Below are positions 32,992-61,498 of a stretch of 64,000 bases of DNA, piece by piece. The notes under the pieces are model-generated. The model ran no database searches. It was not told the origin of the DNA and was given only the letters and a program-made list of their open reading frames with translations. Position 1 is the stretch's first letter. Every line of letters starts with the position of its first letter. Location: assembly GCF_027587195.1 (NCBI RefSeq), contig NZ_JAPDDP010000014.1:1-64000 (forward strand), written 5' to 3'. Position numbers and translations under genes: made by a program. This DNA is from Solirubrobacter phytolaccae (GTDB lineage: Bacteria; Actinomycetota; Thermoleophilia; Solirubrobacterales; Solirubrobacteraceae).

Positions 32992-32997
32992 GCCGCG

Positions 32998-37763: not shown

Positions 37764-37795
37764 AGCAGATGCACAATCAACGAGGAGGAACAGGG

Positions 37796-39025: not shown

Positions 39026-39029
39026 CACT

Positions 39030-42147: not shown

Positions 42148-43008
42148 CTAGCGCACCTTCAAGGTCTTGATGGTCGCCAGGCCCTTGTTGCCCATCGCGT
42201 CGACGGGCCGCAGGGTGACCGTGTAGGTGCCCTTCTTCCGCAGCGCGTTGGTGCGCAGGACGAGCGCGCGCGTGCCGGTCGGCACCTGGAGGGTGGCCGC
42301 CGTCACGGGCTGCGCCGCGCCCTTGCGGGTGACGACCGCGGAGAGCGTGGACTGCTCGGAGAGCCAGAACCGCAGCTGCAGCCCGGCCGTGACGCGCTTG
42401 GCGCTCACGCTCTGCAGGCGCGGCGCCTCGCTGTCCTTCGGCGCGCCTTTGCCCGGGGCGGGCGTCGTCAGGTGATCGTCCGGCGTGGGCGTGGCGCCCG
42501 GGGGGATCGTGGCCGCGAACGTCGGCGTGGCCGTGGCGGTCTCGGTCGGCGTCGCGCTGGGCGTGGACGTCGGCGTCTCCACCTGCTTGCCCTCGACGAT
42601 GACCTTGCCGGTCATGGACGGGTGCGCGCCGCAGACGAACGTGTACTCACCCGCGACGCCGAACGTGAACTCCTGCACGCCGCCCACCTGGAGGGTCGGC
42701 TTGTGCTTGGTCCACGCGTCGTTGGCGGGCGTCGCCGTCTTGCCCTCCGCGTTGTGGTAGCTGCCGTTCGCGGCGGCGAAGTTCCAGGTGACCTTCTCAC
42801 CCGTCTGGATCGTCACGGTCGGCGACTCCGGGCACGGGCCCGTGGTCTGCAGCGAGAAGCACGGGGTCGCCCCGTTCTCCACCGAGTAGATCGTCACGCT
42901 CTCGCGAGCCCCCGCGACGCCGACGCCGGCCGCGATGCCGACAGCGGCCAGCGCGGCCGTGGCCGCAAGCACTCCTGACCGGCGCAACCGGCTGTTTTCG
43001 GTCCTCAT
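42148..43008 (-). CDS. Secreted cupredoxin-domain protein (first gene of copper operon)
   Basis: 286 aa from ATG 43008, with GAGGAG 7 bases upstream. Signal peptide (1-40, AGVGVAGARES). Cupredoxin domain (about 40-150) with type-1 copper ligands: His in SYHNAEG, then Cys, His and Met in FVCGAHPSM (C-x2-H-x2-M). A Thr/Pro-rich linker (about 155-195) joins a beta-sandwich (QLRFWLSEQSTL) similar to that of the third gene. Likely electron carrier to the oxidase. A possible metal-regulator box lies 30 bases upstream of the start. Confidence 0.88.
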   Translation of the reverse strand: MRTENSRLRRSGVLAATAALAAVGIAAGVGVAGARESVTIYSVENGATPCFSLQTTGPCPESPTVTIQTGEKVTWNFAAANGSYHNAEGKTATPANDAWTKHKPTLQVGGVQEFTFGVAGEYTFVCGAHPSMTGKVIVEGKQVETPTSTPSATPTETATATPTFAATIPPGATPTPDDHLTTPAPGKGAPKDSEAPRLQSVSAKRVTAGLQLRFWLSEQSTLSAVVTRKGAAQPVTAATLQVPTGTRALVLRTNALRKKGTYTVTLRPVDAMGNKGLATIKTLKVR

Positions 43009-43036
43009 CCCTGTTCTCCTCAAACCCGGCGGCGTC

Positions 43037-43580: not shown

Positions 43581-45701
43581 ATGCCGCGTTGGGCCGTAAT
43601 CGGCCTCTGGCTGCTGTTCGCCGCTGCGATGGCGCCGCTCCAGGGGCCGCTCCAGACCCGGGCGGCCGACGAGAGCGACACGTTCCTGGCCCGCGGTTCG
43701 GAGTCCGCCGAGGCCAAGCGGGTGATCGAGGAGCGGTTCCGCGCGGGCAACGAGAGCGCGGCAGTGATCGCGTACTTCCGCGACGGTGGGATCACCTCCG
43801 ACGACCGCCTGCGGATCACCGACGACATGACGCGGATCTGCGCCGCGGCGACGATCCCGACGCTCAAGCTGGTCGGCTCGCCGTACGGGCTGGCGTGCGG
43901 TGACCAGGACCCGCTGGACCTGAGCCCGGGCGGCCCGGGCCTGCTGACCTCGCCGGACGGCAGCGTCGCGCTGGCGTCCGCGCTGATGACCGACGACAGC
44001 ACGCCGGTCGCGGAGGCCGCGGTCAGCACGATCCGCGCGATCGTCCCGCCCCCGGAGGGCGACGAGACCGGGCTGAAGGCGTGGGTGACGGGCGAGGTCG
44101 GCTTCGAGGCCGACCGCAGCGAGGCGGTCAAGACGATCGACGAGACGCTGCTGCTGGTGACCTGCACGGTGCTCGTCCTGCTGCTGTTGGCGATCTACCG
44201 CTCCCCGCTGATGGCGCTCGTGCCGATCTTCGTCGTCGGGATCGCGTACGTGGTCGCGGGCGGGCTGACCTACCTGCTCGTCCGGGCGGGCGTGACCACC
44301 GTGAGCGGCCAGTCGACGGCGATCCTGATCGTGCTGATGTTCGGCGCGGGCACGGACTACTGCCTGCTGCTCGTCGCGCGCTTCCGCGACGAGCTCCGGC
44401 GCACCGCCGACGTCGACGCCGCGATCACGAACGCGAGCCGCCGCACAACCCCCGCGATCCTGTCGGCGGGCGCGATCGTGATCGCCGCGATGCTGGTGCT
44501 CGCCGTCGCCGACTTCAACGCCACGCGCGAGATGGGCCCGATCCTCGCGCTCGGGATCGCGGTCATGGTGGTGGCCGGGCTGACGTTGTTGCCCGCCCTG
44601 CTCGGCGTGCTCGGCCGGCGCGCCTTCTGGCCCGCCGTGCCCCACGTCGAGGCCGATCCGCACCCGGTCGCCCCGCTCTGGCGGCGCGTCGGACAGCTGG
44701 TCGAGCGCCACCCCGCGGCCACCGCCGTCGCGGTCACGCTCGTGCTCGTCGCCGGGGCGCTCGGGAACCTCGGCGGCCGCGAGCCGCTCGACTTCTCGGA
44801 GGCGTTCCGCACCCCGCCCCAGTCCGTCGGCGGCGAGCAGATCATCAGCGAGCGGTTCATCCCCGGCCGCGCCGCGCCCGTCGAGGTCGTCATGGACTAC
44901 GCCGACGGCGAGGCCGTGATCTCGCGCCTGACCACCGGGCTGACGACGCCGGTCCAGGAGATGTACCTGTTCGCCGGCTCGATCCCGCCGCGGGAGGGCC
45001 AGGAGTCCGAGCTCGCGCTGGCGCAGGCGTACCTGAAGATGGACCCGTTCTCGGACGCGGCCACGGACTCGGTGCCCGGCCTGCGCAAGGCCGCCCGCGA
45101 GGCGGCGGGCGGTCGGCGCGTGCTGCTGGGCGGCGAGGTGCCCGAGGCCTACGACACGCGCGAGGCGCTCAAGCGCGACAACCGGATCATCGTGCCGCTC
45201 GGGCTGCTGCTGATCCTGGTCATCCTGGCCGTGCTGCTGCGCGCCGTGGTCATGCCGCTGTACGTGATGGCGACCGTGATCCTGTCCTTCGGCTTCGCGC
45301 TCGGCGTCAGCTCGCTGCTGTTCGCGCACGTGATGGACCAACCCGCGAGCGACCAGACGCTCGAGCAGTTCGCGTTCATCTTCCTGGTCGCCCTCGGGGT
45401 CGACTACAACGTCTTCCTGCTCGCCCGCATCCGCGAGGAGCGCGCCGGCGCGGACTCCACGCGCGCGGCCGTGGTCACCGCCCTCGAGCGCACGGGCGGC
45501 GTGATCACGAGCGCCGGCCTGGTGCTGGCCGCGACCTTCAGCGTGCTGATGGCCCTCCCGCTCGAGTCGCTGTTCCAGGTCGGGTTCGTGGTCGCCCTGG
45601 GCCTGCTCGTCGACACGTTCCTGGTGCGGGCCCTGCTCGTGCCCTCCGTCGCCGTTCTGTTGGGCGAGCGCAATTGGTGGCCCAGGACCGCCGGCACTTA
45701 G
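43581..45701 (+). CDS. MMPL-family RND exporter
   Basis: 706-aa membrane transporter with about 11-12 helices in two repeats, each with a large outer loop domain. Seen: the MMPL-type core FGAGTDYCLLLVARFRDEL with ARRTTPAIL-like following segment in repeat 1, and VDYNVFLLARIREE followed by ERTGGVITSAG in repeat 2. It uses the proton gradient to export lipids or hydrophobic compounds. AAGGG precedes ATG 43581. It may export something that works with the giant secreted proteins downstream, but this is speculation. Confidence 0.9.
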   Translation: MPRWAVIGLWLLFAAAMAPLQGPLQTRAADESDTFLARGSESAEAKRVIEERFRAGNESAAVIAYFRDGGITSDDRLRITDDMTRICAAATIPTLKLVGSPYGLACGDQDPLDLSPGGPGLLTSPDGSVALASALMTDDSTPVAEAAVSTIRAIVPPPEGDETGLKAWVTGEVGFEADRSEAVKTIDETLLLVTCTVLVLLLLAIYRSPLMALVPIFVVGIAYVVAGGLTYLLVRAGVTTVSGQSTAILIVLMFGAGTDYCLLLVARFRDELRRTADVDAAITNASRRTTPAILSAGAIVIAAMLVLAVADFNATREMGPILALGIAVMVVAGLTLLPALLGVLGRRAFWPAVPHVEADPHPVAPLWRRVGQLVERHPAATAVAVTLVLVAGALGNLGGREPLDFSEAFRTPPQSVGGEQIISERFIPGRAAPVEVVMDYADGEAVISRLTTGLTTPVQEMYLFAGSIPPREGQESELALAQAYLKMDPFSDAATDSVPGLRKAAREAAGGRRVLLGGEVPEAYDTREALKRDNRIIVPLGLLLILVILAVLLRAVVMPLYVMATVILSFGFALGVSSLLFAHVMDQPASDQTLEQFAFIFLVALGVDYNVFLLARIREERAGADSTRAAVVTALERTGGVITSAGLVLAATFSVLMALPLESLFQVGFVVALGLLVDTFLVRALLVPSVAVLLGERNWWPRTAGT

Positions 45702-45869: not shown

Positions 45870-48800
45870 ATGGTCAATCGTGGTCCCTTCGGCATGCCCG
45901 TACGGCGTGTCGCATTGCTGTGCGCGGCACTCGCGACTGTGTTCGCGATGCTCGTCCCGGCACTCGCCAGTGCGCAGGACACCAAGCGCGTGCTGGTCTA
46001 CACCGGCACCACCGGCTTCCGTCATACGGACGCGATCAACAACGGTCGTCCCGTGGTCGTCTCCGCCATCCAGGCGGCCGGCTACACCGTCGACTGGGAG
46101 GACTGCACCAACAACGGCGGCGGCGCGACGAACTGCGACAACGCTGACAAGAACCCGCGCATCTTCACCGACGCGAACCTCGCGCGCTACGACGCGGTCG
46201 TTCTATTGAACTCCTCGGCCGGGCCTCCCGGCCCGTTGTGGAGCGACGCCCAGAAGGCGTCGATCATCAAGTACGTCCAGAACGGCGGCGGCATCGCGGC
46301 CGTCCACAACGCCTCGGACATGGGCACCACCGCCGAGACGTGGAACTGGTGGGACGGCAACAACGGTAACTCCGTCATCGGCGCCACGATGGCCGGCCAC
46401 GCTGCCACCAGCACCACGAACATCGGCCAGATCCAGGTTGCCGACCACAACCACCTCTCCTCCAAGGACCTCCCGGACCAGTACGGGTTCGGCGACGAGC
46501 ACTACAACTTCCGCCGCAACGTCCGCGGCACGCACCACGTGCTCGCGACGATCGACGAGCGCACCTACACGCCGGGCGGCAACGCCATGGGCCAGGACCA
46601 CCCGATCACGTGGTGCAAGCTCTACGACGGCGACAACATCAACGACAACACGGGCACGCCGAAGTCCTACACGGACGGCCGCACGTGGGTCACGTCGATG
46701 GGCCACTTCGGGTCGCAGTACACCGAGAACGGCGGCAACAACAACCTGATCAAGACGATCGTCGGCGGCGTCCGCTGGGCCGCCGGTGAAGGCCGCAAGT
46801 CCGACTGCTCGGGCACCGTGTGGTCCTCCTACACGCGTGAGGTCGTCGTCGCCGACGCCAACAACCCGATCGGCATCGACGTCGCGAAGGACGGCAAGAT
46901 CTACTGGTCGGAGATCGGCAACCCGATCTCGCTCGAGTCCACGGGCTACATCAAGATGTACGACCCGACGAAGCCGGCCGGCAACAAGACCACGGTCGCC
47001 TCGATCCTGACCCGCGCCGACCACGGCAACTCGGAGGACGGCGTCCTCGGCATGAGCCTGCAGCCGGGCTTCGACCTGACCGACCCGACCAAGCGCAACC
47101 TCTTCGTCTACTACTCGCCGCGCAACGCCGCGTGGCCGATGTCCGGCAGCCAGCAGGTCGTCGGGTACAACCAGATCAGCCGCTTCACGCTGACCGCCGA
47201 CGGCACCGCTGCCGTCCCGGGCTCCGAGCGCGTGATCCTGCGCGTCCCCAAGGCCAAGATCTCCGGCTCGCCCGCCGGTTGCGCCGGCTGCCCGAGCACC
47301 GACGGCCCCGGCCACGTGGGCGGCGCCGGCCTCGACTTCGACTCCGCCGGCAACCTGTACCTCGGCGTCGGTGACGACGTCGCGCCGGGCGGCGGCGGCC
47401 ACAACAACTACGCGCCGATGGACTTCCGCGCCAAGGAGCGCTGGGACGCGCGCAAGACCTCCCAGAACTCGGCGGACCTCCGCGGCAAGATCCTGCGCAT
47501 CACCCCGAAGCTGGGTGACATCCCCGCCGACGCGGAGCCTGTCGTCGACTCGACGTACGCGATCCCCACCGGCAACCTCTTCCCGGTCGGCACCGCGAAG
47601 ACCCGTCCCGAGATCTACGCGATGGGCTTCCGCCAGCCGTTCACCGTGCACACCGACCCGGCGAACCCGGGCACCGTGGGCATGGGCGAGTACTGCCACG
47701 ACAACTCCGCCAACGGCGCCAACCGCTCCCCGGCCGGCACCTGCGAGTGGAACCTCGTGAGCAAGGCCGGCAACCACGGCTGGCCGTTCTGCGTCGGCAA
47801 CAACTCCACCGCGAACACCATGTTCAAGTGGAACTACGCCACCAACGCGACGACGGGCCAGCAGTACGACTGCAACGCCACGAGCCTGCCGTCCGACATC
47901 CGCTACGCGCCGGCGGGCCAGACCGCGGTCGAGCCGACCTTCGACGGCCTCGACACGCTGCCCGGCCCGGTCGAGAAGGCCACGATCTGGAAGAAGTACT
48001 CGGGCGCCGCGGACGGCCAGAGCGCCGCCGACTTCGGCAACCTCGACGCCGGCGGCATGCAGCCGATCACCGGCCCGATCTACCGCTACCCCGAGGGCAC
48101 GGCCGGCCAGGGCGCGTTCCCGCGCTACTACGACGGCTCCTGGCTGATCAACAACCGCGGCGCCGACAACGGCTTCTGGAAGGAAGTCAAGCTCCGCAAG
48201 GACAACAACCAGATGCTGCGCGTCAGCGACTGGCTCCCGTACAACGGCGGCGTCAACCCGTCGGGCGCGAACTCCAGCCTCGTGATCGGCACGCAGTTCG
48301 GTGACGACGGCAACCTGTACATGGCCCGCTACTCCGTCGGCTGCTGCCGTGCGCAGACCAACGCGAGCCAGCAGAACCAGATCGTGAAGATCTCGTTCAA
48401 CGTCCAGGACGAGTGCATCACGGACACCAACGCGCCGAACACGTCGGCCGACGTGACCGGCCAGGCCTACCCGGACACGCCCAACACCTACGTCAACACG
48501 GCCAAGGTCAAGCTCGCCGCCACCGACTCGGGCTGCGCCGGGGTCAAGGGCATCGAGTACCGCCAGCAAGGGTCCACGGAGTGGTTGCCCTACTCGGCTG
48601 AGCTCACCTTCGAAGAGGGCAAGACCTACAACCTCGAGTACCGCGCGACCGACCGCAAGGACAACGTGTCCGCGGTCAAGACCAGCACGTTCACGATCCT
48701 CAAGATCAACGACACGACGGCGCCGGCCACCTCGGCCGCGACGACCGGCAACAAGGACCAGCGCGACTACTTCGTCGGTTCCGCCACGTTCACCGTGACG

Positions 48801-51800
48801 GCGACCGACAGCGAGGTCGGCGGCTCCGGCGTGCAGACCGTCGAGTACCGCGTCAACGGCGGCGCCTGGACCCCGTACCTGAACCCCGTCGCGTTCAACA
48901 CGGCCGGCAACTACACGGTCGACTACCGCGCCACGGACAAGGTCAACAACACGTCCGCGGTCAAGTCGGCCACGTTCCGGATCCTCGCGGGCGCGGGCTG
49001 CACGCAGGCCAAGTCCGACGAGTTCGACGGCACCGCCCTCGGCTCGCAGTGGCAGCGCCACACGCGCAACGGCGGCTCGCCGGCGAGCGCCTTCACGTTC
49101 TCGAACGGCCAGCTGCACATGCCGACGGCCGACTTCGAGCTCGACGCCGCCGCGGCGGCCACGTCCGTCGGCCCGGTGAACTTCATCGGCCAGGACCTGA
49201 ACTCGCTGGGCACCGCCTGGAACGTCGAGACCGAGTTCACGGTCAAGTACACGGGCGGCTGGCAGAACACGGGCCTGATCGTGTGGAACGGAGACAACAA
49301 CTTCTTCCGCGCCTCGATCACGCACAGCCTCTCGGGTGGCGAGATCTACACCGAGCTGTCCAAGGACAACCCGTCGACCACCGAGGGCGCTCGCTCGCAG
49401 GCCGGTGGCAACGTCACAATCGCGCCCAACAAGAACGACGCGATCACCATCCGCATGCGGATGGAGCGCGTCAACGGCGCGAACACCGTCAACGCGCAGT
49501 ACCGCGTCATGGCCCCGGCGGCGATCGCCTCCGCCAACTGGGTCAACTTCGGCAACGTCTCCGGCTTCCTGGACCTGAACCCGTCGTCCGGCGCTCGCCG
49601 TGACGCCGCCGGGTCCCGGATCGGCATCATCACGCAGTCCAACTTCCCGGGCACCACGGGCAACAACCCCTACACGGGCACCCCGGGCACGGTCGACGTG
49701 AACTACTTCCGGGTCACCCCGGACCCGATGTCCTGCGAGACGGTCGCGCCGGCCACGACGGCGACGCTGGACCCCGCGGCCCCGACCACGGGCGACACGT
49801 ACGACCGCGCGGTGAAGGTCAACTTCTCCGCCACCGACACCGGCACGAACGCCGCCGGCGTCGAGAAGACCGAGTACCGGATCACCACCAACGGCGTCGC
49901 CGGTGAGTGGACCACGAAGAGCAACTCGGCCAACGAGAGCCCGTTCGTGAACCAGATCACGGTCTCGAGCAACGGCACGAACCTCGTCGAGTTCCGCTCG
50001 ACGGACAAGGCCGCCAACACGGAGGAGACCAAGTCGGTCACCTTCAAGCTCAACCTGCCGGTCTGCGACCGCTCGGATGAGTTCGACGGCACGGAGATCC
50101 TGCCGCGCTGGCTCCGTCACACGCGCAACGGCGGCACGCCCACCACGGGCCCGCTCGCGCCGACGGTCTCCGGCGGCCAGCTCCACCTGCCGACGAACGA
50201 CCTCGAGATCGACGCCGCCGACGTGAACACGTCGGTCGGCCCGATCAACTTCCTGGGTCAGGACCTGGCGTCGCTCGGCAACAACTGGACGGTGGAGACG
50301 CAGTTCACCGCTCAGTACCGCGGCGGCTGGCAGAACATCGGCCTGGTGGTGTGGAACGGGGACAACAACTTCATCCGCTCCACGCTGTCGCACAGCCTCA
50401 GCTCCAGCGCCATCTACGTCGAGAGCTCCAAGGACAACCCGACGACGACCGAGGGCTCGCGGGCCACGGCCGGCAGCAACCGCAACATCCTGGCCACGAA
50501 CACCGGCCCGGTGACGATCAAGATGCGGTACCGGCGCGTGGACGGCGCCAACACCCTGCAGGCGCACTACCAGGTCATCGCGCCCGCCGCGGCGGCCAAC
50601 GCCGACTGGGTCGCGTTCCCGGGTGCGGCGACCTTCTGGGACCTGAACCCGTCCAGCGGTGCCCGCCGTGACGCGGCCGGCTCCCGCATCGGCCTGATCG
50701 CGCAGGACAACTGGCCCGCCGGCGGTACGTTCCCGTCGAACGGCAACCCGGCGATCGCGCACGTCGACTACTTCCGCGTCACCCCGGACAACTGCCCGGT
50801 GGGCGCGGACACCACGGCCCCGACGACGACCGCCACGGCGGCCCCGACGGCGCCGAACGGCACGGCCGGCTGGTACACGTCGGACGTCAACGTGACCCTC
50901 GCGGGCAACGACGGCGCCAACGGCTCCGGCGTGGACCGCATCGAGTACAAGGTCAACGGCGGCGCGTTCGCCACCTACACCGCGCCGATCGCGCTGACGA
51001 CGACCGGCACGCACACGATCGAGTACCGCTCGATCGACAAGAACAACAACGTCGAGGCCACCAAGACGACGACCGTCAAGGTCGACAAGGCGGCCCCGAC
51101 GTCGACGGCGACCCTCGAGCCGGCCACCGGCCCGTACACGGGCACCGTCACGCTGACGCTCGCCGCGACCGACCAGGCCGCGGGCTCGGGCGTGTCCAAG
51201 CTCGAGTTCCAGGTCAACACGGCCAGCCCGTTCGGCGCCCTGGGCGCGGCGAAGGTCGCGAACGCGGCGCTCGCCTGGGAGACCTACGACCCGGCGAACA
51301 AGCCGAAGTTCACGGCTCCGGGCGTGTACTCCGTCGACTACCGCGCGACGGACGCGGCCGGCAACGTGGAGGCCGCCAAGGCGGTGACCTTCACGATCAC
51401 CGCGCCGAACAACGACAAGACCGCTCCGATCACCACGGAGACGCTCGACCCGGCCGCGCCGGGTGCCGGCAAGACCTACTCCGGCCCCGTCAAGGTCAAG
51501 TTCTCGGCCAACGATCCCACTCCGGGCGGCCCGGCGGCCAAGACCGTCGAGGTCGAGGCCAGCGGCGACCGCTGGACGCCCGCGGCCGTGGCGCTGAACA
51601 CCAACGACAAGATCCAGTGGAACTTCTCCGCTGAGAACGCCGTGTTCCCGCACGACGTGTGGGTCAACGCCCCCAACGCCGCGACCCAGGCCAGCCCGAC
51701 GCAGGTCACGCAGTTCCCGGTCTCCCCGGGCGGCGCGTCGGTGTCGAAGACGTTCGATCAGAACGGCACGTGGACCTTCATCTGCAAGATCCACTCCTTC

Positions 51801-53558
51801 TACACGGCCGCCACGGACAAGTGGGAAGGCATGGTCGGCACGGCCACCGTCACGGCCGCGCCGTCCGGCGAGGCGCCGTCGAAGGTCGACTTCACCGAGT
51901 ACCGCGTGAAGACCGGCGCGACCCAGGGTGACTGGGTCAAGGCCACGAACACGGCCGGGGCCAACCCGTTCGCGTCCGAGGTCACCGTCGAGGCCGAGGG
52001 CCAGCACACGGTCGAGTTCCGCTCGACCGACAAGGCCGGCAACGTGGAGGCCACCAAGTCGGTCGCGTTCGGCATCGACATCCCCGATCCGGGCTTCCCG
52101 ATCATCGAGGCGTTCGCCGATCCGGCCAGCGGCCAGGCTCCGCTGCTCACCCGCTTCACCGCTTCGGGCTATGACCCCGACGGTGGCACGCTGAGCTACA
52201 AGTGGGAGTTCGTGGACGGCAGCGTCATCGGGCGCGCCGCGACGCGGACCTACACCAAGCCGGGCACGTACACGGCGAAGGTCACGGCCACGGACGACGA
52301 GGGCGACTCGACCTCCAAGGAGGTCACGGTCACCGTGACGGCGCCGGGCGTGCAGCCCCCGACCGTCGAGCTCGGGTCCAACGTCACGGGCGGCGCGGCG
52401 GCGCTGAGCGTCAAGTTCACCGCCACCGGCAACGACCCCGACGGTGAGGAGGAAGACCTCCTCTACGCGTGGGACTTCGGCGACGGCTCGATGGGCTCGT
52501 TCGAGCAGAACCCGACGCACACGTACGTGGCGAAGGGCACCTACACCGCCAAGGTGACGGTGAGCGACGGCAGCGGCGCGACCGCGTCCAAGACGGTGGT
52601 CATCACCGTCACGGACACCCCGGGCAACGCCGCTCCGGTGATCGACGGCATCGGCAAGCTCAGCCCGCACGGGAACCCGATGCAGCTGCAGCTCACGGTG
52701 CAGGCGCACGATCCCGAGAACGACAAGCTCACGTTCACGTGGGACTTCGACGATCAGACGAGCGCCACGGGCGCCGACGTGACGCACACCTGGACGACCG
52801 CCGGCACGTACAACGTGAAGGTGACCGCGTCCGACGGCAAGGGCGGCACGGCGACGCGCACGGAGACGGTGACGGTGTCGCCGGCGGCCAACGTGCTGCC
52901 GACGGTGACCATCGCCGCGGACCCGACCCAGGGCTCGGCGCCGCTGCCGGTCCAGTTCTCGGCCAACCCCGACGACCCGGACGGCGACAGGCGCAACCTG
53001 CTCTACGTCTGGGCGTTCGGCGACGGCTCTTTCTCGGCCGAGCAGAACCCGCTGCACACCTACACGCTTCCGGGCGTGCACACCGCGACGCTGACGGTCA
53101 CCGACGCGCGCGGCGGCAAGACCACCAAGTCGGTCCAGATCACGGTCTCCTCGGTCCAGGGCGGTCCCGCCCCGGCGCCGAAGGGCCCGGACGCGGCCCC
53201 GACTCAGGCGCCGTGGTTCGGCGTCAGCGAGCCGGTCAAGACCTCGGTCGCCGGATTCGCCAAGAGCGGCCTGTCGGTCAAGGTCACCGCTACGGAGGCC
53301 ATGACCGGCTCCGCCAAGCTCGTCGTCTCGAGCAAGGTCGCCAAGGCCCTCGGCCTGAAGTCGACCACGCTCGCCACCGCGTCCGTGAAGTTCACGAGCG
53401 CCGGCAGCAAGACGGTGAAGTTCAAGGTCAGCAAGACCGTCAAGAAGGCCCTCGCGAAGGCCAAGGGGTCCGTGAAGGTCACGCTCGCGGTGAGCCTCAA
53501 GGCTCAGGGTGAGTCCGCGAAGAGCTCGACGCGGAGCGTCACGCTCACGCGCCGATAG
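45870..53558 (+). CDS. Giant secreted protein A: ThuA / sugar dehydrogenase-like propeller / Ig-like / ConA-like / nested cupredoxin / PKD
   Basis: 2562 aa. Order: signal peptide (1-36), ThuA-like domain (40-305), glucose/sorbosone-dehydrogenase-like beta-propeller (330-845), two OmpL47-type Ig-like repeats (853-1040), concanavalin-like module (1044-1285), Ig-like repeat (1291-1395), second concanavalin-like module (1401-1645), two Ig-like repeats (1647-1850), one Ig-like repeat interrupted by a cupredoxin (1890-1998) and resuming at 2005, four PKD domains (2075-2430) and a C-terminal module (2432-2562). Copper ligands H1928, C1972, H1975, M1988 are complete. It probably binds and oxidises a polysaccharide or sugar outside the cell. 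No sorting signal or C-terminal anchor. Strong ribosome site; own promoter and terminator. Confidence 0.92.
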   Translation: MVNRGPFGMPVRRVALLCAALATVFAMLVPALASAQDTKRVLVYTGTTGFRHTDAINNGRPVVVSAIQAAGYTVDWEDCTNNGGGATNCDNADKNPRIFTDANLARYDAVVLLNSSAGPPGPLWSDAQKASIIKYVQNGGGIAAVHNASDMGTTAETWNWWDGNNGNSVIGATMAGHAATSTTNIGQIQVADHNHLSSKDLPDQYGFGDEHYNFRRNVRGTHHVLATIDERTYTPGGNAMGQDHPITWCKLYDGDNINDNTGTPKSYTDGRTWVTSMGHFGSQYTENGGNNNLIKTIVGGVRWAAGEGRKSDCSGTVWSSYTREVVVADANNPIGIDVAKDGKIYWSEIGNPISLESTGYIKMYDPTKPAGNKTTVASILTRADHGNSEDGVLGMSLQPGFDLTDPTKRNLFVYYSPRNAAWPMSGSQQVVGYNQISRFTLTADGTAAVPGSERVILRVPKAKISGSPAGCAGCPSTDGPGHVGGAGLDFDSAGNLYLGVGDDVAPGGGGHNNYAPMDFRAKERWDARKTSQNSADLRGKILRITPKLGDIPADAEPVVDSTYAIPTGNLFPVGTAKTRPEIYAMGFRQPFTVHTDPANPGTVGMGEYCHDNSANGANRSPAGTCEWNLVSKAGNHGWPFCVGNNSTANTMFKWNYATNATTGQQYDCNATSLPSDIRYAPAGQTAVEPTFDGLDTLPGPVEKATIWKKYSGAADGQSAADFGNLDAGGMQPITGPIYRYPEGTAGQGAFPRYYDGSWLINNRGADNGFWKEVKLRKDNNQMLRVSDWLPYNGGVNPSGANSSLVIGTQFGDDGNLYMARYSVGCCRAQTNASQQNQIVKISFNVQDECITDTNAPNTSADVTGQAYPDTPNTYVNTAKVKLAATDSGCAGVKGIEYRQQGSTEWLPYSAELTFEEGKTYNLEYRATDRKDNVSAVKTSTFTILKINDTTAPATSAATTGNKDQRDYFVGSATFTVTATDSEVGGSGVQTVEYRVNGGAWTPYLNPVAFNTAGNYTVDYRATDKVNNTSAVKSATFRILAGAGCTQAKSDEFDGTALGSQWQRHTRNGGSPASAFTFSNGQLHMPTADFELDAAAAATSVGPVNFIGQDLNSLGTAWNVETEFTVKYTGGWQNTGLIVWNGDNNFFRASITHSLSGGEIYTELSKDNPSTTEGARSQAGGNVTIAPNKNDAITIRMRMERVNGANTVNAQYRVMAPAAIASANWVNFGNVSGFLDLNPSSGARRDAAGSRIGIITQSNFPGTTGNNPYTGTPGTVDVNYFRVTPDPMSCETVAPATTATLDPAAPTTGDTYDRAVKVNFSATDTGTNAAGVEKTEYRITTNGVAGEWTTKSNSANESPFVNQITVSSNGTNLVEFRSTDKAANTEETKSVTFKLNLPVCDRSDEFDGTEILPRWLRHTRNGGTPTTGPLAPTVSGGQLHLPTNDLEIDAADVNTSVGPINFLGQDLASLGNNWTVETQFTAQYRGGWQNIGLVVWNGDNNFIRSTLSHSLSSSAIYVESSKDNPTTTEGSRATAGSNRNILATNTGPVTIKMRYRRVDGANTLQAHYQVIAPAAAANADWVAFPGAATFWDLNPSSGARRDAAGSRIGLIAQDNWPAGGTFPSNGNPAIAHVDYFRVTPDNCPVGADTTAPTTTATAAPTAPNGTAGWYTSDVNVTLAGNDGANGSGVDRIEYKVNGGAFATYTAPIALTTTGTHTIEYRSIDKNNNVEATKTTTVKVDKAAPTSTATLEPATGPYTGTVTLTLAATDQAAGSGVSKLEFQVNTASPFGALGAAKVANAALAWETYDPANKPKFTAPGVYSVDYRATDAAGNVEAAKAVTFTITAPNNDKTAPITTETLDPAAPGAGKTYSGPVKVKFSANDPTPGGPAAKTVEVEASGDRWTPAAVALNTNDKIQWNFSAENAVFPHDVWVNAPNAATQASPTQVTQFPVSPGGASVSKTFDQNGTWTFICKIHSFYTAATDKWEGMVGTATVTAAPSGEAPSKVDFTEYRVKTGATQGDWVKATNTAGANPFASEVTVEAEGQHTVEFRSTDKAGNVEATKSVAFGIDIPDPGFPIIEAFADPASGQAPLLTRFTASGYDPDGGTLSYKWEFVDGSVIGRAATRTYTKPGTYTAKVTATDDEGDSTSKEVTVTVTAPGVQPPTVELGSNVTGGAAALSVKFTATGNDPDGEEEDLLYAWDFGDGSMGSFEQNPTHTYVAKGTYTAKVTVSDGSGATASKTVVITVTDTPGNAAPVIDGIGKLSPHGNPMQLQLTVQAHDPENDKLTFTWDFDDQTSATGADVTHTWTTAGTYNVKVTASDGKGGTATRTETVTVSPAANVLPTVTIAADPTQGSAPLPVQFSANPDDPDGDRRNLLYVWAFGDGSFSAEQNPLHTYTLPGVHTATLTVTDARGGKTTKSVQITVSSVQGGPAPAPKGPDAAPTQAPWFGVSEPVKTSVAGFAKSGLSVKVTATEAMTGSAKLVVSSKVAKALGLKSTTLATASVKFTSAGSKTVKFKVSKTVKKALAKAKGSVKVTLAVSLKAQGESAKSSTRSVTLTRR

Positions 53559-53573
53559 GCACAGGCAGGGAAA

Positions 53574-53602
53574 GGCGGCCGCCCCTGGTCAGGGCGGCCG
53601 CC
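53574..53602 (+). terminator. Intrinsic terminator after giant gene A
   Basis: GGCGGCCGCCC and GGGCGGCCGCC form a perfect 11-bp stem around CTGGTCA, followed by TTCG. The same loop and stem core recur after giant gene B. Confidence 0.8.
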
Positions 53603-53693
53603 TTCGCGTGTTGGAGAGAGACCAAGCAATCGCGCTTGGCGCCGACGAAGTCGGCTGCCGCGTTCGATTGCCGGCATCAACAAGGGGAGAGGG

Positions 53694-56600
53694 ATGGCAC
53701 GGAAGTGGGTTGGTCTGGCTGTCGCGTTGGTGCTGCTCGGGGCGTTGGCCCCGGCCGCCGCGTCGGCGCAAACAGAGTCGGCGAAGGTCCTCATCTACTC
53801 GGGGACGACGGGCTACCGGCACGCGGGGACGAGTGAGGCGATCCAGCCCGCGGTGGTGGAGCTGATCCAGGCCAAGCTGCAGGCCGCCGGCATCGCCAGT
53901 GACTACCGGACGTGCAACGGGCACGGCACCGGCACGGGCACGATTCCAGGCTGCCGGAACACGACGGTCGGCAACCCCGCGATCTTCACCGGCGCGAACC
54001 TCGCCCAGTACGACGCGATCTTCTTCTGGCAGGCGTCTTCGCTGAACCGCGGCGACACGACCAGCCCGCAGCTGTTCAACACCGCCGAGCAGACCGCGAT
54101 CGAGGCGTTCGCGCGCGCCGGCGGCGGCATCGCGGCGATGCACGCCTCGGTCACGATGGGCGCCGGCGCGGTGACGTGGCCGTGGTGGGACGGCCCGGGC
54201 GACAGCGCGATCGGTGCGCTGATGCCGGGCCACTCCGCCACCGACGCCAACAACCTCGCGACGGTCGAGGTCTCCGACCGCCATCACCCGTCGACGAAGG
54301 ACCTCCCCGACAGCTACCGCTTCGGCGACGAGCACTACACGTTCTCCTCCAACGTGCGCGGCACGCACCACGTGCTGATGACGCTCGACGAGGAGAGCTA
54401 CACCGTCGGCAGCGGCGTGACCCGGATGGGCGCCGACCACCCGATCGCCTGGTGCCGGATCTACGAGGGCGCGCGCATCTGGAGCTCGAGCCTCGGGCAC
54501 TTCTCCGCCGCCTACCTCGAGAACGGTGGCGACAACAACCTGATCAAGCACCTGGTCGGCGGCGTGCGCTACGTCGCGGGCACGGCGGGCAAGGACTCCG
54601 ACTGCGGCGCCACGGTGTGGACGAACTTCTCGCGCACCGTCCTCGCGGACGACCTGCGCGGCGCGATCGGCATGGACATCGCGCGCGACGGCAAGATCTA
54701 CTGGACCGAGATCGGCAACCAGGCGCTGAACTCCGAGGGCCGGCTGCGCCTGTACAACCCGGAGACGAAGGCGACGAGCACGCTGCTCACGCTGCAGACG
54801 CGCGCCGACCACGAGTCCTCCAACGACGGCGTGCTCGGCATGGCGCTGGACCCGAACTTCGCCACCAACCGGCAGCTGTACATCTACTACTCGCCGCGCA
54901 TCGACCCGGGCTGCAACAGCTGCCTCGTGGTCGGCCACAACCTGATCAGCCGCTTCACGCTGAACGCCGCCGGCACGGCGGTCGTGACCGGGTCCGAGGT
55001 GGAGATCCTGCGCGTGCCGAAGGTCAAGGTCGGCAACGACAACCGCGACGGCGTCGCCGGGCAGAACACCTACGGCACGCACGTCGGCGGCGGCACGCTG
55101 AGCTTCGACTCGCAGGGCAACCTCTACATCGGCACCGGCGACGACGCCGATCCGTTCGGCCAGGGCGGCAACGGCTACGCGCCGATGGACCAGCGCTACC
55201 CCGAGCGCTACGACGCGCGCAACACGTCGGCGAACACGAACGACCTGCGCGGCAAGGTCCTGCGCATCCGCCCGAAGCCCGAGGGCGGCTACGACATCCC
55301 GGCCGGCAACATGTTCCCGGTCGGCACCGCGAAGACGAAGCCCGAGATCTACGCGATGGGCTTCCGCAACCCGTTCACCGTGCAGGCCGACCCGGCGCAT
55401 CCGGGCACGGTCGTCGTCGGCGACTACGGTCCGGACGCGGCGACCAACTCGACGACGCGCGGCCCCGCCGGCATCATCGAGTGGAACCGCGTCACCAAGC
55501 CGGGCTTCTACGGCTGGCCGCTGTGCGCGGGTGACAACTCCGCGGCGAACTCCTACTTCCGCTACACGTTCCCGAGCGGCCCGTCCGGCGCGCGCTACGA
55601 CTGCGCCGGCGCGACCGTCCCGAACGACTCGCCGAACAACAGCGGGTTGACCGACCTCCCCGGCCCGGCCGTCGGCGCGGACGTCTGGCACAAGCGCACG
55701 GGCGACCACCCGGCGCGGTTCGCGATCCCGACCCGCTCGAGCCCGCAGGAGTCGATCACGGGCCCGATCTACAAGTTCGACGCGGCGAACCCGTCGGACA
55801 CGAAGTGGCCCGCGTACTACGACGGCGCCTGGTTCATCCTCGACCGCGCGCAGAACTGGTGGCGCGAGGCGCGCGTGAAGGACGACGGCTCGAGCCTGCT
55901 GCGCGTGAACGGCCTGTTCGGCTCGACCCAGTTCGGCGGGCCCAGCCACTCGTACCCGATCCCGGTCAAGTTCGGGCCCGACGGCTCGCTCTACGTGGCC
56001 ACGTGGGATCACGACTGCTGCCGCGCGCAGCTCCCGGCCAGCGCGCCGGGCCGGCTGATGCGGATCGACTTCATCGGCGATCAGGTGGACACCACCGCGC
56101 CGGTGGTCACGCCCGCGGTGACGGGCGCGCAGAACCCGAGCGGCGCGTACCTCGGGCGCGCGACGCTCGCGCTCGCCGCGACCGACAGCTCCGGCGTCTC
56201 GCGCGTGGAGTACTCGCTCGACGGGACGGAGTGGACGCGCTACACCGACCCGGTCGCGTTCACCCAGCGCGGCACGTTCACGGTCCGCTTCCGCGCGACC
56301 GACCAGGCCGGCAACACGTCCGAGGTCCAGCAGTCGACGTTCACCGTCGTGGCCGGCGCGAGCTGCCTGCCCGCGCGCTCGGACGAGTTCGCCGGCACGT
56401 TGGACACGACGCGCTGGAGCTATCGCCACCCGACGACGCCCACGGGCACGCGTGCCCCGAGCGTGAGCGGCGGGAGCCTCGTGCTGCCGCTCGGCGCCTA
56501 CTCGCTGGACCTCACGCGTACCGGCCCGTCCGCGATCCTCGGCCAGCCGCTGCCCGACGGCGACTTCGAGGTCGTCACCAAGATCACGGCGCCCGGGCTG

Positions 56601-59600
56601 GGCGGCGACAACGGCGGCCAGGGCAGCACGTACGCCCAGGTCGGCCTGAAGATCTTCCAGACCAACGACAACTGGATCAAGGTCGCGCATACGCGCAACG
56701 CCGACGGCAACCCGACCGGCACGGTGGGCACGTACTTCGAGATCACCACCGAGTCGGCCGGGACGCGCGTGCTCGGCGCCCGCCAGGGCCTCGGCACGGG
56801 CAACCTGCCGACGTGGTGGATGCGCATCACGCGTCAGGGCAGCGTCGTCCGCGGCGCGTACTCGCTGACCGACCCCGACGGCGGGGGCGGTGGCGCGAGC
56901 TGGGTCGAGATGGGCGTCAACGCCAACCTCGACACGCTGCTGCCGACGAGCGCCGGTCCGCGTTACCTCTCGCTCTACGGTGGCAACGGGTCGAGCTCGG
57001 CGAGCTTCGACTACGTGCGCTTGACCCCGGACGTGCCGACGGACCAGTCGGCGCCGGTGAGCACCCACACGGTCTCCGCAGCCGACGGCGCCGCGGGCTG
57101 GCACCGCACCCCGGTCGACGTCTCCGTGAGCGCCGCCGACGACGGCGAGTGCGTCTCGGGCGTCGACAAGACCGAGTACCGGGTCGGCGCGGGCGCGTTC
57201 GCGACCTACACGGCGCCGATCAACCTGACGCAGGACGGCACGCACGTCGTCGAGTACCGCTCGGTCGACAAGGCCGGCAACGCCGAGACGGCGAAGGCGG
57301 TCACGGTCAAGCTCGACGCCACCGCGCCGGCCACGACCGCGACGACGAACCCGTCGGGCGCCGGTCCGCACCCCGGCCCGGTCACGCTGACGCTGGACGC
57401 CGCGGACGCGACGTCGGGCGTGGCGCTCACCGAGTACCGCGTCAACAACGGCGGCGCGTTCGCCGGCGCGGCCGCCGCGCGGCTCGCGGCGCCGGCGGAG
57501 TGGCAGGTGTACAGCGCGGCGAGCAAGCCGGCGTTCAGCGCGACCGGCACGTACGTCATCGAGTACCGCTCCAAGGATGCCGCCGGCAACGAGGAGGCGC
57601 CGAAGACGCTGTCGTTCACGGTCGGCACCCCGACCGGCGACGCGACCGCCCCGGTCACCAGCGCCACGCTGGACCCGGCGCAGCCCGGCCCCGGCCGCAC
57701 GTACCCGGGCCCGGTCACGGTGAAGTTCTCCGCGCTCGACGCGGCGCCGGCGAGCAACGTCGACGTCAACGCGAACGGCACGGTGTGGACGCCGTCGGCG
57801 GTCAACCTGAGCGCGGGCGACACGGTCACCTGGCGCTTCGGCGCCACGGCGGGCTCCGCGCACGACGTGTGGCTGGTCCCGCCGGGCGGCAACCCGAGCC
57901 CGACGGGCCCGGACCTGCTCAAGCTCTCGGAGATCGTGTTCCCGGGCGGCGAGCCCGTCTCGCGCGCGCTCACGCAGACCGGCACGTACACGTTCGTGTG
58001 CCGCCTGCACGCCGCGTTCAGCGGCGGCGCGTGGACCGGCATGGTCGGCACCGCGGCGGTGGCCACGGGCGCCGGCAGCGGCGTCGACTTCACCGAGTCC
58101 CGGGTCGACGGCGGCACGTGGGCGAAGGCCACGAACACGGCGGGCGCGAGCCCGTTCGCGTCGCAGCTGGCGGTCACCGCCGAGGGCGACCACAACGTCG
58201 AGTTCCGCTCGACCGACAAGGCGGGCAACGTCGAGGCCACCAAGTCCGTGGCCTTCGCGATCAAGGCGCCGGCGCCGGGCTTCCCGGTGATCGAGGCGTT
58301 CGCCGACCCGGCGACGGGCGCGGCGCCGCTGCCGGTGCGCTACTCGGCCTCGGGCTATGACCCCGACGACGGCACCCTCACCTACAAGTGGGCGTTCGCC
58401 GACGGCGTCGTGTTCGGGAAGACCGCCTCGCGCACGTACACCAAGCCCGGCACCTACACCGCGACCGTCACGGCCACCGACGACGAGGGCGACACCACCG
58501 AGCGCGAGGTCACGGTCACGGTGACCGGGCCGGGCGTGCTCCCGCCGACCGTCGAGGCGAGCTCGAACGTGACGGGCGGCGCCGCGCGGCTGAGCGTGGC
58601 GTTCACGGCGGCCGGCGCCGATCCGGACGGCGATCCCGCCCGGCTCACGTACGCGTGGGACTTCGGTGACGGGGCCACGTCGTTCGAGCAGAACCCGACG
58701 CACGTCTACGGCACGCCGGGCGTCTACGGCGCCAAGGTCACGGTCACCGACCCGGGCGGCGCCACGGCGACCAAGACGGTGACGATCACGGTCCTCGACG
58801 CGCCCGGCAACGGCGCGCCGACGATCGAGGACGCGGCCAGCGTGCCCGGGCCGAGCGGCGACCCGCTCCAGGTGCGCTTCACCGCGCACGCTACCGACCC
58901 GGACGGCGACCGGATCACGTACGAGTGGGACTTCGACGACGGCTCCGAGAAGGGCGCCGGCCCGGACGTCCTGCACGCGTACCCGCGGCCCGGGACCTAC
59001 GACGCGAAGGTGCGCGTGTTCGACGGCCTCGGCGCCGCGACCACGCGGACCGTCAAGGTCACGGTCGGCGGCGCGGCCAACGTCCCGCCGGCGGTCACGC
59101 TCGCGGCCGACCCGGTCCGCGGCACGGCACCGCTGCCGGTCACGTTCAGCTCGCGGATCGAGGACGCGGACGGGGACGTCAAGAACGCCCTGACGGTCTG
59201 GGCGTTCGGCGACGGCGGCTTCGCGGCCGGCGAGACCGCGGTCCACACGTACACGACGCCCGGCGTCCACACGGCGACGCTGACGGTGACCGACGAGCGC
59301 GGCGGCAAGACCACCAAGTCGGTCCAGATCACGGTCTCGGCCGCCCTGCCGAGCTCGCCGTCGGCGCCCAAGTACGCGGACGTCGCGCCCGCGCAGGCGC
59401 CGTGGTTCGGCGTCAGCGAGCCGGTGAAGACGTCGGTCAGCGGCTTCGCCAAGCGCGGGCTCACGGTCCGGGTCACGTGCACGGAGGCGATGACCGGCTC
59501 CGCGCAGCTGACCGTCTCGAGCAAGGTCGCCAAGGCCCTGGGCCTGAAGAAGACCACGCTCGTGAGCGCGCCCGTGCGGTGCGCGGCCGGCGCCAAGGCC

Positions 59601-59744
59601 GTGACGCTGAAGCCCTCGGCCGCGGTCAAGCGGGCGCTGGGCAAGGCGAAGGGCGCCGTGAAGGTCACGCTGGGCGTCTCGCTGCGGGCACGGGGTGAGG
59701 CGACCCAACGGTCGTCGCGCACCGTGACGTTCACGCGCGGATAG
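53694..59744 (+). CDS. Giant secreted protein B: paralogue of A with one ConA-like module
   Basis: 2016 aa. ATG 53694 with AAGGGGAG just upstream. Order: signal peptide (1-24, ASA-QT), ThuA-like (28-300), sugar-dehydrogenase-like propeller (320-790), Ig-like repeat (about 800-890), one concanavalin-like module (about 893-1115), Ig-like repeats, an Ig-like repeat interrupted by a cupredoxin (about 1355-1460), four PKD domains (about 1523-1885) and the same C-terminal module. Copper ligands H1390, C1436, H1439, M1450 are complete; the His-to-Met loop is longer than in plastocyanin. Compared with A it lacks one ConA-like module and has fewer Ig-like repeats. A tandem duplication followed by domain loss or gain explains the pair. 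Confidence 0.92.
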   Translation: MARKWVGLAVALVLLGALAPAAASAQTESAKVLIYSGTTGYRHAGTSEAIQPAVVELIQAKLQAAGIASDYRTCNGHGTGTGTIPGCRNTTVGNPAIFTGANLAQYDAIFFWQASSLNRGDTTSPQLFNTAEQTAIEAFARAGGGIAAMHASVTMGAGAVTWPWWDGPGDSAIGALMPGHSATDANNLATVEVSDRHHPSTKDLPDSYRFGDEHYTFSSNVRGTHHVLMTLDEESYTVGSGVTRMGADHPIAWCRIYEGARIWSSSLGHFSAAYLENGGDNNLIKHLVGGVRYVAGTAGKDSDCGATVWTNFSRTVLADDLRGAIGMDIARDGKIYWTEIGNQALNSEGRLRLYNPETKATSTLLTLQTRADHESSNDGVLGMALDPNFATNRQLYIYYSPRIDPGCNSCLVVGHNLISRFTLNAAGTAVVTGSEVEILRVPKVKVGNDNRDGVAGQNTYGTHVGGGTLSFDSQGNLYIGTGDDADPFGQGGNGYAPMDQRYPERYDARNTSANTNDLRGKVLRIRPKPEGGYDIPAGNMFPVGTAKTKPEIYAMGFRNPFTVQADPAHPGTVVVGDYGPDAATNSTTRGPAGIIEWNRVTKPGFYGWPLCAGDNSAANSYFRYTFPSGPSGARYDCAGATVPNDSPNNSGLTDLPGPAVGADVWHKRTGDHPARFAIPTRSSPQESITGPIYKFDAANPSDTKWPAYYDGAWFILDRAQNWWREARVKDDGSSLLRVNGLFGSTQFGGPSHSYPIPVKFGPDGSLYVATWDHDCCRAQLPASAPGRLMRIDFIGDQVDTTAPVVTPAVTGAQNPSGAYLGRATLALAATDSSGVSRVEYSLDGTEWTRYTDPVAFTQRGTFTVRFRATDQAGNTSEVQQSTFTVVAGASCLPARSDEFAGTLDTTRWSYRHPTTPTGTRAPSVSGGSLVLPLGAYSLDLTRTGPSAILGQPLPDGDFEVVTKITAPGLGGDNGGQGSTYAQVGLKIFQTNDNWIKVAHTRNADGNPTGTVGTYFEITTESAGTRVLGARQGLGTGNLPTWWMRITRQGSVVRGAYSLTDPDGGGGGASWVEMGVNANLDTLLPTSAGPRYLSLYGGNGSSSASFDYVRLTPDVPTDQSAPVSTHTVSAADGAAGWHRTPVDVSVSAADDGECVSGVDKTEYRVGAGAFATYTAPINLTQDGTHVVEYRSVDKAGNAETAKAVTVKLDATAPATTATTNPSGAGPHPGPVTLTLDAADATSGVALTEYRVNNGGAFAGAAAARLAAPAEWQVYSAASKPAFSATGTYVIEYRSKDAAGNEEAPKTLSFTVGTPTGDATAPVTSATLDPAQPGPGRTYPGPVTVKFSALDAAPASNVDVNANGTVWTPSAVNLSAGDTVTWRFGATAGSAHDVWLVPPGGNPSPTGPDLLKLSEIVFPGGEPVSRALTQTGTYTFVCRLHAAFSGGAWTGMVGTAAVATGAGSGVDFTESRVDGGTWAKATNTAGASPFASQLAVTAEGDHNVEFRSTDKAGNVEATKSVAFAIKAPAPGFPVIEAFADPATGAAPLPVRYSASGYDPDDGTLTYKWAFADGVVFGKTASRTYTKPGTYTATVTATDDEGDTTEREVTVTVTGPGVLPPTVEASSNVTGGAARLSVAFTAAGADPDGDPARLTYAWDFGDGATSFEQNPTHVYGTPGVYGAKVTVTDPGGATATKTVTITVLDAPGNGAPTIEDAASVPGPSGDPLQVRFTAHATDPDGDRITYEWDFDDGSEKGAGPDVLHAYPRPGTYDAKVRVFDGLGAATTRTVKVTVGGAANVPPAVTLAADPVRGTAPLPVTFSSRIEDADGDVKNALTVWAFGDGGFAAGETAVHTYTTPGVHTATLTVTDERGGKTTKSVQITVSAALPSSPSAPKYADVAPAQAPWFGVSEPVKTSVSGFAKRGLTVRVTCTEAMTGSAQLTVSSKVAKALGLKKTTLVSAPVRCAAGAKAVTLKPSAAVKRALGKAKGAVKVTLGVSLRARGEATQRSSRTVTFTRG

Positions 59745-61405: not shown

Positions 61406-61472
61406 TTTGATACTGACTGGACGGCGGCGGCATGCTTGCGCGCTGTCCTCCAAACCCGTTACGCTCCGTCGT

Positions 61473-61486
61473 GGCAAACGCTTTCC
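61473..61486. promoter_or_regulatory. LacI-family-like operator before the second sugar operon
   Basis: GGCAAACGCTTTCC matches the palindrome GGAAAGCGCTTTCC at 12 of 14 positions on its other strand, with the central CG typical of LacI/CcpA operators. It lies 12 bases before the GTG start. No LacI gene is in the window. Confidence 0.5.
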
Positions 61487-61498
61487 GTGAGGAGACCA

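What the first reader, a model, noticed from the sequence alone, without database searches (positions are those of the whole stretch)
45870..59744. Two tandem giant secreted proteins joining ThuA, a sugar-dehydrogenase-like propeller and a type-1 copper domain
Seen: both proteins carry the same order of ThuA, glucose/sorbosone-dehydrogenase-like propeller, Ig-like and concanavalin-like modules, a cupredoxin with complete His-Cys-His-Met ligands, four PKD domains and a shared C-terminal module. Known: the propeller family oxidises sugars with PQQ, and cupredoxins carry single electrons. Inference: one molecule may bind a polysaccharide, oxidise its sugars and pass electrons out through copper. 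I know of no characterised protein with this architecture.
Basis: partly seen in the sequence, partly recalled or inferred. Interest (0 to 1): 0.82.

Follow-up and report, generated by a model that had tools for sequence, protein, structure and literature searches.

The report
Giant secreted proteins with embedded copper domain
A soil bacterium (Solirubrobacter) encodes two huge secreted proteins that combine sugar-binding parts, a propeller related to sugar-oxidising enzymes and a plastocyanin-like copper domain built into an immunoglobulin-like domain, next to genes for copper proteins and an oxygen-reducing copper enzyme, which suggests an unstudied way to oxidise sugars outside the cell, although the usual cofactor-binding residues are partly missing.

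Summary
The architecture is real. Both ORFs (2562 and 2016 aa) carry signal peptide, ThuA, GSDH-type propeller, OmpL47-type Ig domains, concanavalin-like modules, a type-1 copper cupredoxin with invariant His-Cys-His-Met, four PKD domains and a common C-terminal module. The cupredoxin is inserted inside an Ig domain (AlphaFold pLDDT 95; best PDB matches plastocyanins). Every cupredoxin-in-Ig unit found lies in a ThuA-GSDH protein, in Solirubrobacter and one MAG of the same order. In this genome separate cupredoxin genes and three of five multicopper oxidases also cluster with ThuA-GSDH genes; a cupredoxin-multicopper oxidase-cupredoxin operon lies just upstream. The functional claim is only partly supported. 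The propeller fold is closest to PQQ aldose dehydrogenases, and the catalytic His and Arg228 equivalents are kept, but the equivalents of Lys377, Arg406 and Arg408 are absent, and neither this genome nor three architecture-bearing relatives has PqqC above cut-off. Best reading: a secreted, carbohydrate-binding oxidoreductase with a built-in copper electron relay feeding small cupredoxins and a multicopper oxidase. The relay is inferred, and PQQ as cofactor is doubtful. It works like fungal AA12-AA8-CBM1 pyranose dehydrogenase, but is not a member of that family.

The parts
45870..53558 (+). Giant protein A (P0001), 2562 aa: signal peptide, ThuA, GSDH-type propeller, Ig, concanavalin-like x2, Ig with inserted cupredoxin, PKD x4, C-terminal module
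45984..46793 (+). ThuA domain of A (aa 39-308)
   Evidence: (E 2.5e-38)
46800..48410 (+). GSDH-type six-bladed propeller of A (aa 311-847); keeps His482 and Arg588, has Gln589 and Ser620-Pro621
48996..49724 (+). Concanavalin-like module 1 of A (aa 1043-1285; Pfam GH43_C2)
50064..50789 (+). Concanavalin-like module 2 of A (aa 1399-1640)
51411..52088 (+). Ig (OmpL47-type) domain of A that holds the cupredoxin (aa 1848-2073)
   Evidence: by alignment to the modelled domain of B
51528..51851 (+). Inserted type-1 copper cupredoxin of A (aa 1887-1994; ligands H1928, C1972, H1975, M1988)
52098..53147 (+). Four PKD domains of A (aa 2077-2426)
53190..53546 (+). C-terminal module of A (aa 2441-2559)
53694..59744 (+). 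Giant protein B (P0002), 2016 aa: same order with one concanavalin-like module
53781..54587 (+). ThuA domain of B (aa 30-298)
   Evidence: 4jqs, Z 21.6
54597..56084 (+). GSDH-type propeller of B (aa 302-797); keeps His463, Arg558, Asn559, Gly590-Pro591; Lys377/Arg406/Arg408 equivalents are Ala719, Tyr754, Ile756
56361..57032 (+). Concanavalin-like module of B (aa 890-1113)
57636..58274 (+). Ig domain of B that holds the cupredoxin (aa 1315-1527)
57756..58061 (+). Inserted type-1 copper cupredoxin of B (aa 1355-1456; ligands H1390, C1436, H1439, M1450)
58284..59336 (+). Four PKD domains of B (aa 1531-1881)
59379..59732 (+). C-terminal module of B (aa 1896-2013)
42148..43023 (-). Separate secreted cupredoxin, first gene of the cupredoxin-MCO-cupredoxin operon
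40675..42147 (-). Multicopper oxidase with HxHG, HxH, HPxHxHG and HCHxxxH motifs; proposed terminal oxidase
39956..40768 (-). Separate secreted cupredoxin, third gene of that operon (listed ORF starts upstream of the likely start)
43581..45701 (+). MMPL-family transporter directly upstream of A, kept in synteny
33127..39890 (+). Sugar uptake and handling genes: Gfo/Idh/MocA, sugar ABC transporter, substrate-binding protein, xylose-isomerase-like TIM barrel, kept in synteny
61436..63780 (+). Gfo/Idh/MocA oxidoreductase and DUF993 protein, kept in synteny downstream of B

Best explanation
The two proteins are secreted, polysaccharide-associated oxidoreductases with a built-in electron relay. ThuA and the concanavalin-like modules hold a glycan (ThuA-like folds serve as carbohydrate-binding domains in other proteins). 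The GSDH-type propeller oxidises the sugar at the pocket built around the conserved His and Arg. Electrons pass to the type-1 copper centre carried in the Ig arm, then to small secreted cupredoxins and the neighbouring multicopper oxidase, which reduces O2. Released oxidised sugars are taken up by the adjacent sugar ABC transporter and processed by Gfo/Idh/MocA and TIM-barrel enzymes. Shown: domains, folds, copper ligands, gene association. Inferred: catalysis, cofactor, electron path, substrate.
For: Propeller model matches PQQ aldose dehydrogenases best (3a9g Z 37.6, 2ism 37.3, PQQ-bound 3das 34.6). His144 and Arg228 equivalents are kept in both proteins, Asn229 and Gly247-Pro248 in B. Cupredoxin ligands are invariant in 23 sequences; model pLDDT 95.1; plastocyanin matches. 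The cupredoxin-in-Ig unit was found only in ThuA-GSDH proteins. In the genome, 11 of 17 Copper-bind genes are fused to or within 6 kb of one of 18 ThuA-GSDH genes (expected about 0.7; binomial 4e-12, or 2e-7 for non-fused ones; the 6-kb limit was set after seeing the data). Three of five multicopper oxidases sit at such loci, each next to cupredoxin genes. A paralogue 64-69% identical to A over ThuA-GSDH has its cupredoxin as a separate gene 18 bp downstream. Paralogues carry CBM6. Working precedent: AA12 propeller + cytochrome b + CBM1 (PMC6881789). From general knowledge: quinoproteins donate electrons to cupredoxins in the methylamine dehydrogenase-amicyanin and quinohaemoprotein alcohol dehydrogenase-azurin pairs.
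Against: Equivalents of Lys377, Arg406 and Arg408, which bind or line PQQ in sGDH, are absent; AA12 also lacks Lys377 but keeps an Arg (Arg621) shared with the bacterial enzymes. No PqqC in this genome or above cut-off in three architecture-bearing relatives, while 7 of 246 phylum genomes have it. Propeller and cupredoxin are separated by about 560-1050 residues of Ig and concanavalin modules, so close approach is unproven. One same-genus genome keeps both giant proteins without the cupredoxin-MCO-cupredoxin operon at this place. The same propeller fold is non-enzymatic in Hedgehog-interacting protein (Z 28.5).
Confidence: 0.42

Rival explanations
1. Non-redox surface glycan-binding protein. 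The propeller has lost PQQ and works as a binding platform (as in Hedgehog-interacting protein), ThuA and concanavalin-like modules bind polysaccharide, and the cupredoxin holds copper for another reason, such as storage, delivery to the neighbouring multicopper oxidase or stability.
For: Half of the PQQ site is missing; no PqqC; HHIP shares the fold; a paralogue in the genome has lost the catalytic His and Arg (L001:10522-12075); ThuA-like domains in Agd3 and in the levan-binding SGBP are carbohydrate-binding.
Against: The His/Arg pair is kept in nearly all of the family and the propeller is under purifying selection; full type-1 copper ligands, including the axial Met, are typical of electron transfer rather than storage (general knowledge).
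Confidence: 0.3
2. Classical PQQ-dependent sugar dehydrogenase that uses PQQ scavenged from the soil, with new residues replacing the missing anchors.
For: AA12 shows that anchors can be replaced (Lys377 is absent there). His144, Arg228, Asn229 and Gly247-Pro248 equivalents are kept in B. From general knowledge, some bacteria without PQQ synthesis use external PQQ.
Against: Hydrophobic residues (Tyr/Leu and Ile) stand at the two Arg positions in both proteins; A has also changed Asn229 to Gln and Gly247 to Ser; no PqqC.
Confidence: 0.15
3. Part of a 3-keto-glycoside pathway: the protein oxidises C3 of bound sugars outside the cell and the cytoplasmic Gfo/Idh/MocA and TIM-barrel enzymes finish the work.
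For: Sugar ABC transporter, two Gfo/Idh/MocA genes, a TIM-barrel gene and DUF993 flank the proteins in conserved synteny. Extracytoplasmic 3-keto-disaccharide steps with DUF1080 hydrolases are proposed in Caulobacter (PMC9007349). ThuA was named from trehalose use (Pfam name).
Against: No DUF1080 domain in the two proteins or in four paralogues scanned; flanking Gfo/Idh/MocA genes serve many sugar pathways.
Confidence: 0.1

Closest known systems
Coprinopsis cinerea pyranose dehydrogenase CcPDH (CAZy AA12-AA8-CBM1; PMC6881789)
   Same: Secreted six-bladed GSDH-type propeller joined to a built-in electron carrier and a carbohydrate-binding module
   Different: The carrier is cytochrome b, not type-1 copper; fungal; keeps PQQ ligands (e.g. 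Arg621) that are absent here; no ThuA, Ig, PKD or cupredoxin
Bacterial PQQ aldose sugar dehydrogenases (3a9g, 2ism, 3das, 2g8s) and sGDH (1c9u, 1cru)
   Same: Propeller fold (Z 37.6 to 28.6), catalytic His and Arg228 equivalents
   Different: Single-domain enzymes; sGDH has Lys377, Arg406 and Arg408, and 2ism keeps the RxR motif; here these are absent and the propeller is one part of a giant protein
ThuA-GSDH-PKD multidomain proteins of Actinomycetota
   Same: Same ThuA-propeller core with PKD, concanavalin-like and often CBM6 modules; 23 of 296 phylum genomes match the ThuA-GSDH profile, some over ThuA or the propeller alone
   Different: No cupredoxin seen in the parts sampled of members outside the order; typical members have CCH before the catalytic His, which the window pair lacks
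Plastocyanin (1byo, 1bxu, 1pcs)
   Same: Fold and His-Cys-His-Met ligands with C-x2-H spacing
   Different: Here a domain inserted in an Ig domain of a giant protein; longer His-to-Met loop (10 and 12 residues between, against 4)
Hedgehog-interacting protein propeller (7pgn, 3ho4)
   Same: Same propeller fold in a non-enzymatic binding protein
   Different: Animal signalling protein; no ThuA or copper domain

Membership tests
GSDH / PQQ-dependent sugar dehydrogenase | Six-bladed propeller of the GSDH fold | tested here: met
   Pfam GSDH over cut-off in both; model of B Z 37.6 with 3a9g over 338 residues, rmsd 2.6
GSDH / PQQ-dependent sugar dehydrogenase | Catalytic His144 and Arg228 (sGDH numbering) | tested here: met
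   H463/R558 in B and H482/R588 in A
GSDH / PQQ-dependent sugar dehydrogenase | PQQ-site basic residues Lys377, Arg406, Arg408 | tested here: not met
   Ala719, Tyr754, Ile756 in B; Gly764, Leu804, Ile806 in A, by profile alignment and motif spacing
GSDH / PQQ-dependent sugar dehydrogenase | NCBIfam TIGR03606 score over its cut-off | tested here: not met
   B 44.6 bits against 434.55; A no hit
GSDH / PQQ-dependent sugar dehydrogenase | PQQ and Ca bound; sugar oxidation | not testable with these tools
   Needs protein
Type-1 copper cupredoxin (plastocyanin/azurin family) | Cupredoxin fold | tested here: met
   pLDDT 95.1, plastocyanin top matches, TM to target about 0.72
Type-1 copper cupredoxin (plastocyanin/azurin family) | His-Cys-His-Met ligands | tested here: met
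   Invariant in 23 sequences; positions; geometry not measured
Type-1 copper cupredoxin (plastocyanin/azurin family) | Bound copper with blue absorption | not testable with these tools
   Needs protein
ThuA family (PF06283) | Profile score and fold | tested here: met
   132.9 and 124.3 bits, cut-off 33.4; 4jqs Z 21.6
AA12-AA8-CBM1 pyranose dehydrogenase (CcPDH) | Cytochrome b (AA8) carrier domain | tested here: not met
   No such Pfam domain in either protein; the carrier-type domain is a cupredoxin
ThuA/propeller proteins fused to c-type cytochrome | CxxCH haem motif | tested here: not met
   No CxxCH in ORFs over 600 aa of the 20 own-genome ThuA loci; none seen in the two window protein sequences

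The most novel reading that the evidence does not exclude
A bacterial extracellular copper-linked glycan oxidation system: glycan-bound propeller enzymes with an Ig-embedded blue-copper relay pass electrons through small cupredoxins to a multicopper oxidase and O2, using a cofactor or site other than canonical PQQ in the GSDH pocket.
Probability: 0.2. Interest if true: 0.85.

Novelty: new variant of a known kind. Interest (0 to 1): 0.6.

Why it matters
Fungi use secreted sugar dehydrogenases with a built-in haem carrier to drive extracellular oxidative breakdown of plant material. A bacterial counterpart that uses blue copper, in soil actinobacteria and repeated several times in one genome, would be a new solution to the same problem. 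It would also give a first testable role to the large, uncharacterised ThuA-GSDH protein group, whose PQQ dependence is assumed from annotation but which here lacks key anchors.

Tried and rejected
(1) Viral contigs searched with the cupredoxin region: no relative. (2) c-type cytochrome fusion as the electron exit: no CxxCH in ORFs over 600 aa of the 20 own-genome ThuA loci. (3) DUF1080 (3-keto-disaccharide hydrolase) as the identity of the concanavalin-like modules: not found; they match GH43_C2 and DUF1349. (4) A multicopper oxidase-cupredoxin fusion at L001 suggested by the 767-aa ORF: the N-terminal part is another reading frame over the MCO gene, and the cupredoxin has its own start. (5) dN/dS above 1 in the PKD region against G157: an artefact, since the G157 proteins lack the PKD repeats and end in a different domain. 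(7) Literature searches gave no characterised protein of this architecture; the library is open-access only.
Full report
What is there. The window lies in a Solirubrobacter-type genome (7.7 Mb, 169 contigs, 99% complete; the genus is named by the relatives found). Two ORFs, A (45870-53558, 2562 aa) and B (53694-59744, 2016 aa), start with signal peptides ending in A-x-A and share one architecture. The order is ThuA, GSDH-type propeller, OmpL47-type Ig, concanavalin-like module (two in A, one in B), Ig domains, Ig with inserted cupredoxin, four PKD domains, C-terminal module. They are 44-50% identical over the shared parts. Orthologues of each, mostly 68-88% identical, occur in other Solirubrobacter species, so the duplication is older than those species.

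The copper domain. Pfam sees the cupredoxin only weakly, but the structure prediction of P0002 1315-1528 is confident (mean pLDDT 95.1) and shows cupredoxin strands between two halves of one Ig domain. The best PDB matches are plastocyanins (TM to target about 0.72). The four ligands are invariant in 23 related sequences. The His-to-Met loop is longer than in plastocyanin. The domain is therefore a type-1 copper candidate nested in an Ig domain.

The propeller. The ThuA-propeller model of B has pLDDT 82.4 and pTM 0.84. It fits PQQ aldose dehydrogenases best (Z 37.6 to 3a9g, 34.6 to PQQ-bound 3das), ahead of Hedgehog-interacting protein (28.5) and AA12 (26.2). The profile alignment to sGDH places His463 (A: His482) at the catalytic His144, Arg558 (A: Arg588) at Arg228, Asn559 (A: Gln589) at Asn229, and Gly590-Pro591 (A: Ser620-Pro621) at Gly247-Pro248, which bind the active-site calcium (general knowledge of sGDH). 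At Lys377, Arg406 and Arg408 stand Ala, Tyr, Ile in B and Gly, Leu, Ile in A. Among 52 ThuA-GSDH propellers compared, an Arg at the 406 position occurs in 8 and at the 408 position in 2; in none of the 8 was a fused cupredoxin seen, though several of those sequences were sampled only in part. Fungal AA12 also lacks Lys377 and still binds PQQ, but it keeps an Arg shared with the bacterial enzymes (PMC6881789). PQQ is thus possible but not supported. The genome has no PqqC; the same search finds it over cut-off in 7 of 246 genomes of the phylum, and not above cut-off in the three relatives with this architecture. PqqE matches stay far below cut-off.

Association with copper proteins. The cupredoxin-in-Ig unit was found only in ThuA-GSDH proteins: several Solirubrobacter species and one MAG of the same order; 4 of 299 genomes of the class carry it. 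The genome has 26 ThuA matches, 18 genes with both ThuA and GSDH and 17 genes over the Copper-bind cut-off; 11 of these are fused to or within 6 kb of a ThuA-GSDH gene. The 6-kb limit was chosen after seeing the data, so the binomial value (4e-12; 2e-7 without fusions) is a guide. Three of five multicopper oxidases lie at such loci on contigs C55, C147 and C96, each with cupredoxin genes on both sides. One paralogue (L011) that is 64-69% identical to A over ThuA-GSDH has its cupredoxin as a separate gene 18 bp downstream. Fused and separate forms of the same pair suggest that the two work together.

Neighbourhood. In the window the order is Gfo/Idh/MocA, sugar ABC transporter, TIM barrel, cupredoxin-MCO-cupredoxin (opposite strand), MmpL, A, B, AbiE pair, Gfo/Idh/MocA, DUF993. 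Most of this order is kept in S. deserti, and parts of it in the S. pratensis and S. soli loci; G157 keeps A and B but not the copper operon at this place.

How it may work. See best explanation. The fold, copper ligands and gene association are shown by computation. Sugar oxidation, cofactor, electron transfer and substrate are inferred. ThuA-like domains act in carbohydrate binding in Agd3 and in the levan-binding SGBP (PMC7229062, PMC7618045), and CBM6 occurs in four paralogues; both favour glycan binding.

Comparison and novelty. In working plan it is closest to CcPDH (AA12-AA8-CBM1): propeller, built-in carrier, carbohydrate-binding module. It is not a member, since the carrier is copper and PQQ anchors are missing. 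As a GSDH-fold protein it is a member by fold; as a PQQ dehydrogenase a tested defining feature is not met. I found no characterised protein with this architecture in the open-access library. I rate it a new variant of a known kind.

Limits. Only open-access papers could be searched. Association counts come from one genome; relatives were checked at selected loci only. The alignment at the Arg406/Arg408 positions is by sequence profile and motif spacing, not by measured structure superposition. dN/dS values come from a simple pairwise count in a very GC-rich genome and are rough.

Noticed in passing
window 59839-61319 (-): AbiEii nucleotidyltransferase toxin and AbiEi-type antitoxin gene pair between B and the Gfo/Idh/MocA gene; in S. 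taibaiensis (L045) and G157 these two neighbours are directly adjacent, so the pair looks inserted.
   Followed up: partly
P0002 aa 460-466 and 774-778; P0001 aa 479-485 and 823-828: Typical ThuA-GSDH propellers have a vicinal Cys pair before the catalytic His (CCH). The window clade lacks it and instead has a Cys pair (CCR) near the last blade; in the propellers compared the two patterns exclude each other.
   Followed up: partly
L001:10522-12075 (+) and L041:9991-13065 (+): ThuA-GSDH paralogue next to a giant cupredoxin-bearing one, in which the catalytic His is Arg; in L001 the Arg228-Asn229 pair is changed too: a probably inactive partner kept in two genomes.
   Followed up: partly
L001:12195-14531 (+), L041:12369-14846 (+): Secreted proteins with three cupredoxin-like domains; in both copies the first domain lacks the Cys-His loop ligands.
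   Followed up: no
L035+L036 (G157), A and B orthologues: The four PKD domains and C-terminal module are replaced by a different C-terminal domain, which resembles the end of the separate cupredoxin of L011; the core ThuA-propeller-cupredoxin is kept.
   Followed up: partly
own genome: 26 ThuA and 41 GSDH matches in one genome, many in ORFs over 1400 aa: a large expansion of giant secreted carbohydrate-related proteins.
   Followed up: partly
window 29197-33096 (-): Three ROK-family-like transcriptional regulator genes in a row, upstream of the sugar ABC transporter (by sequence appearance, not scanned).
   Followed up: no
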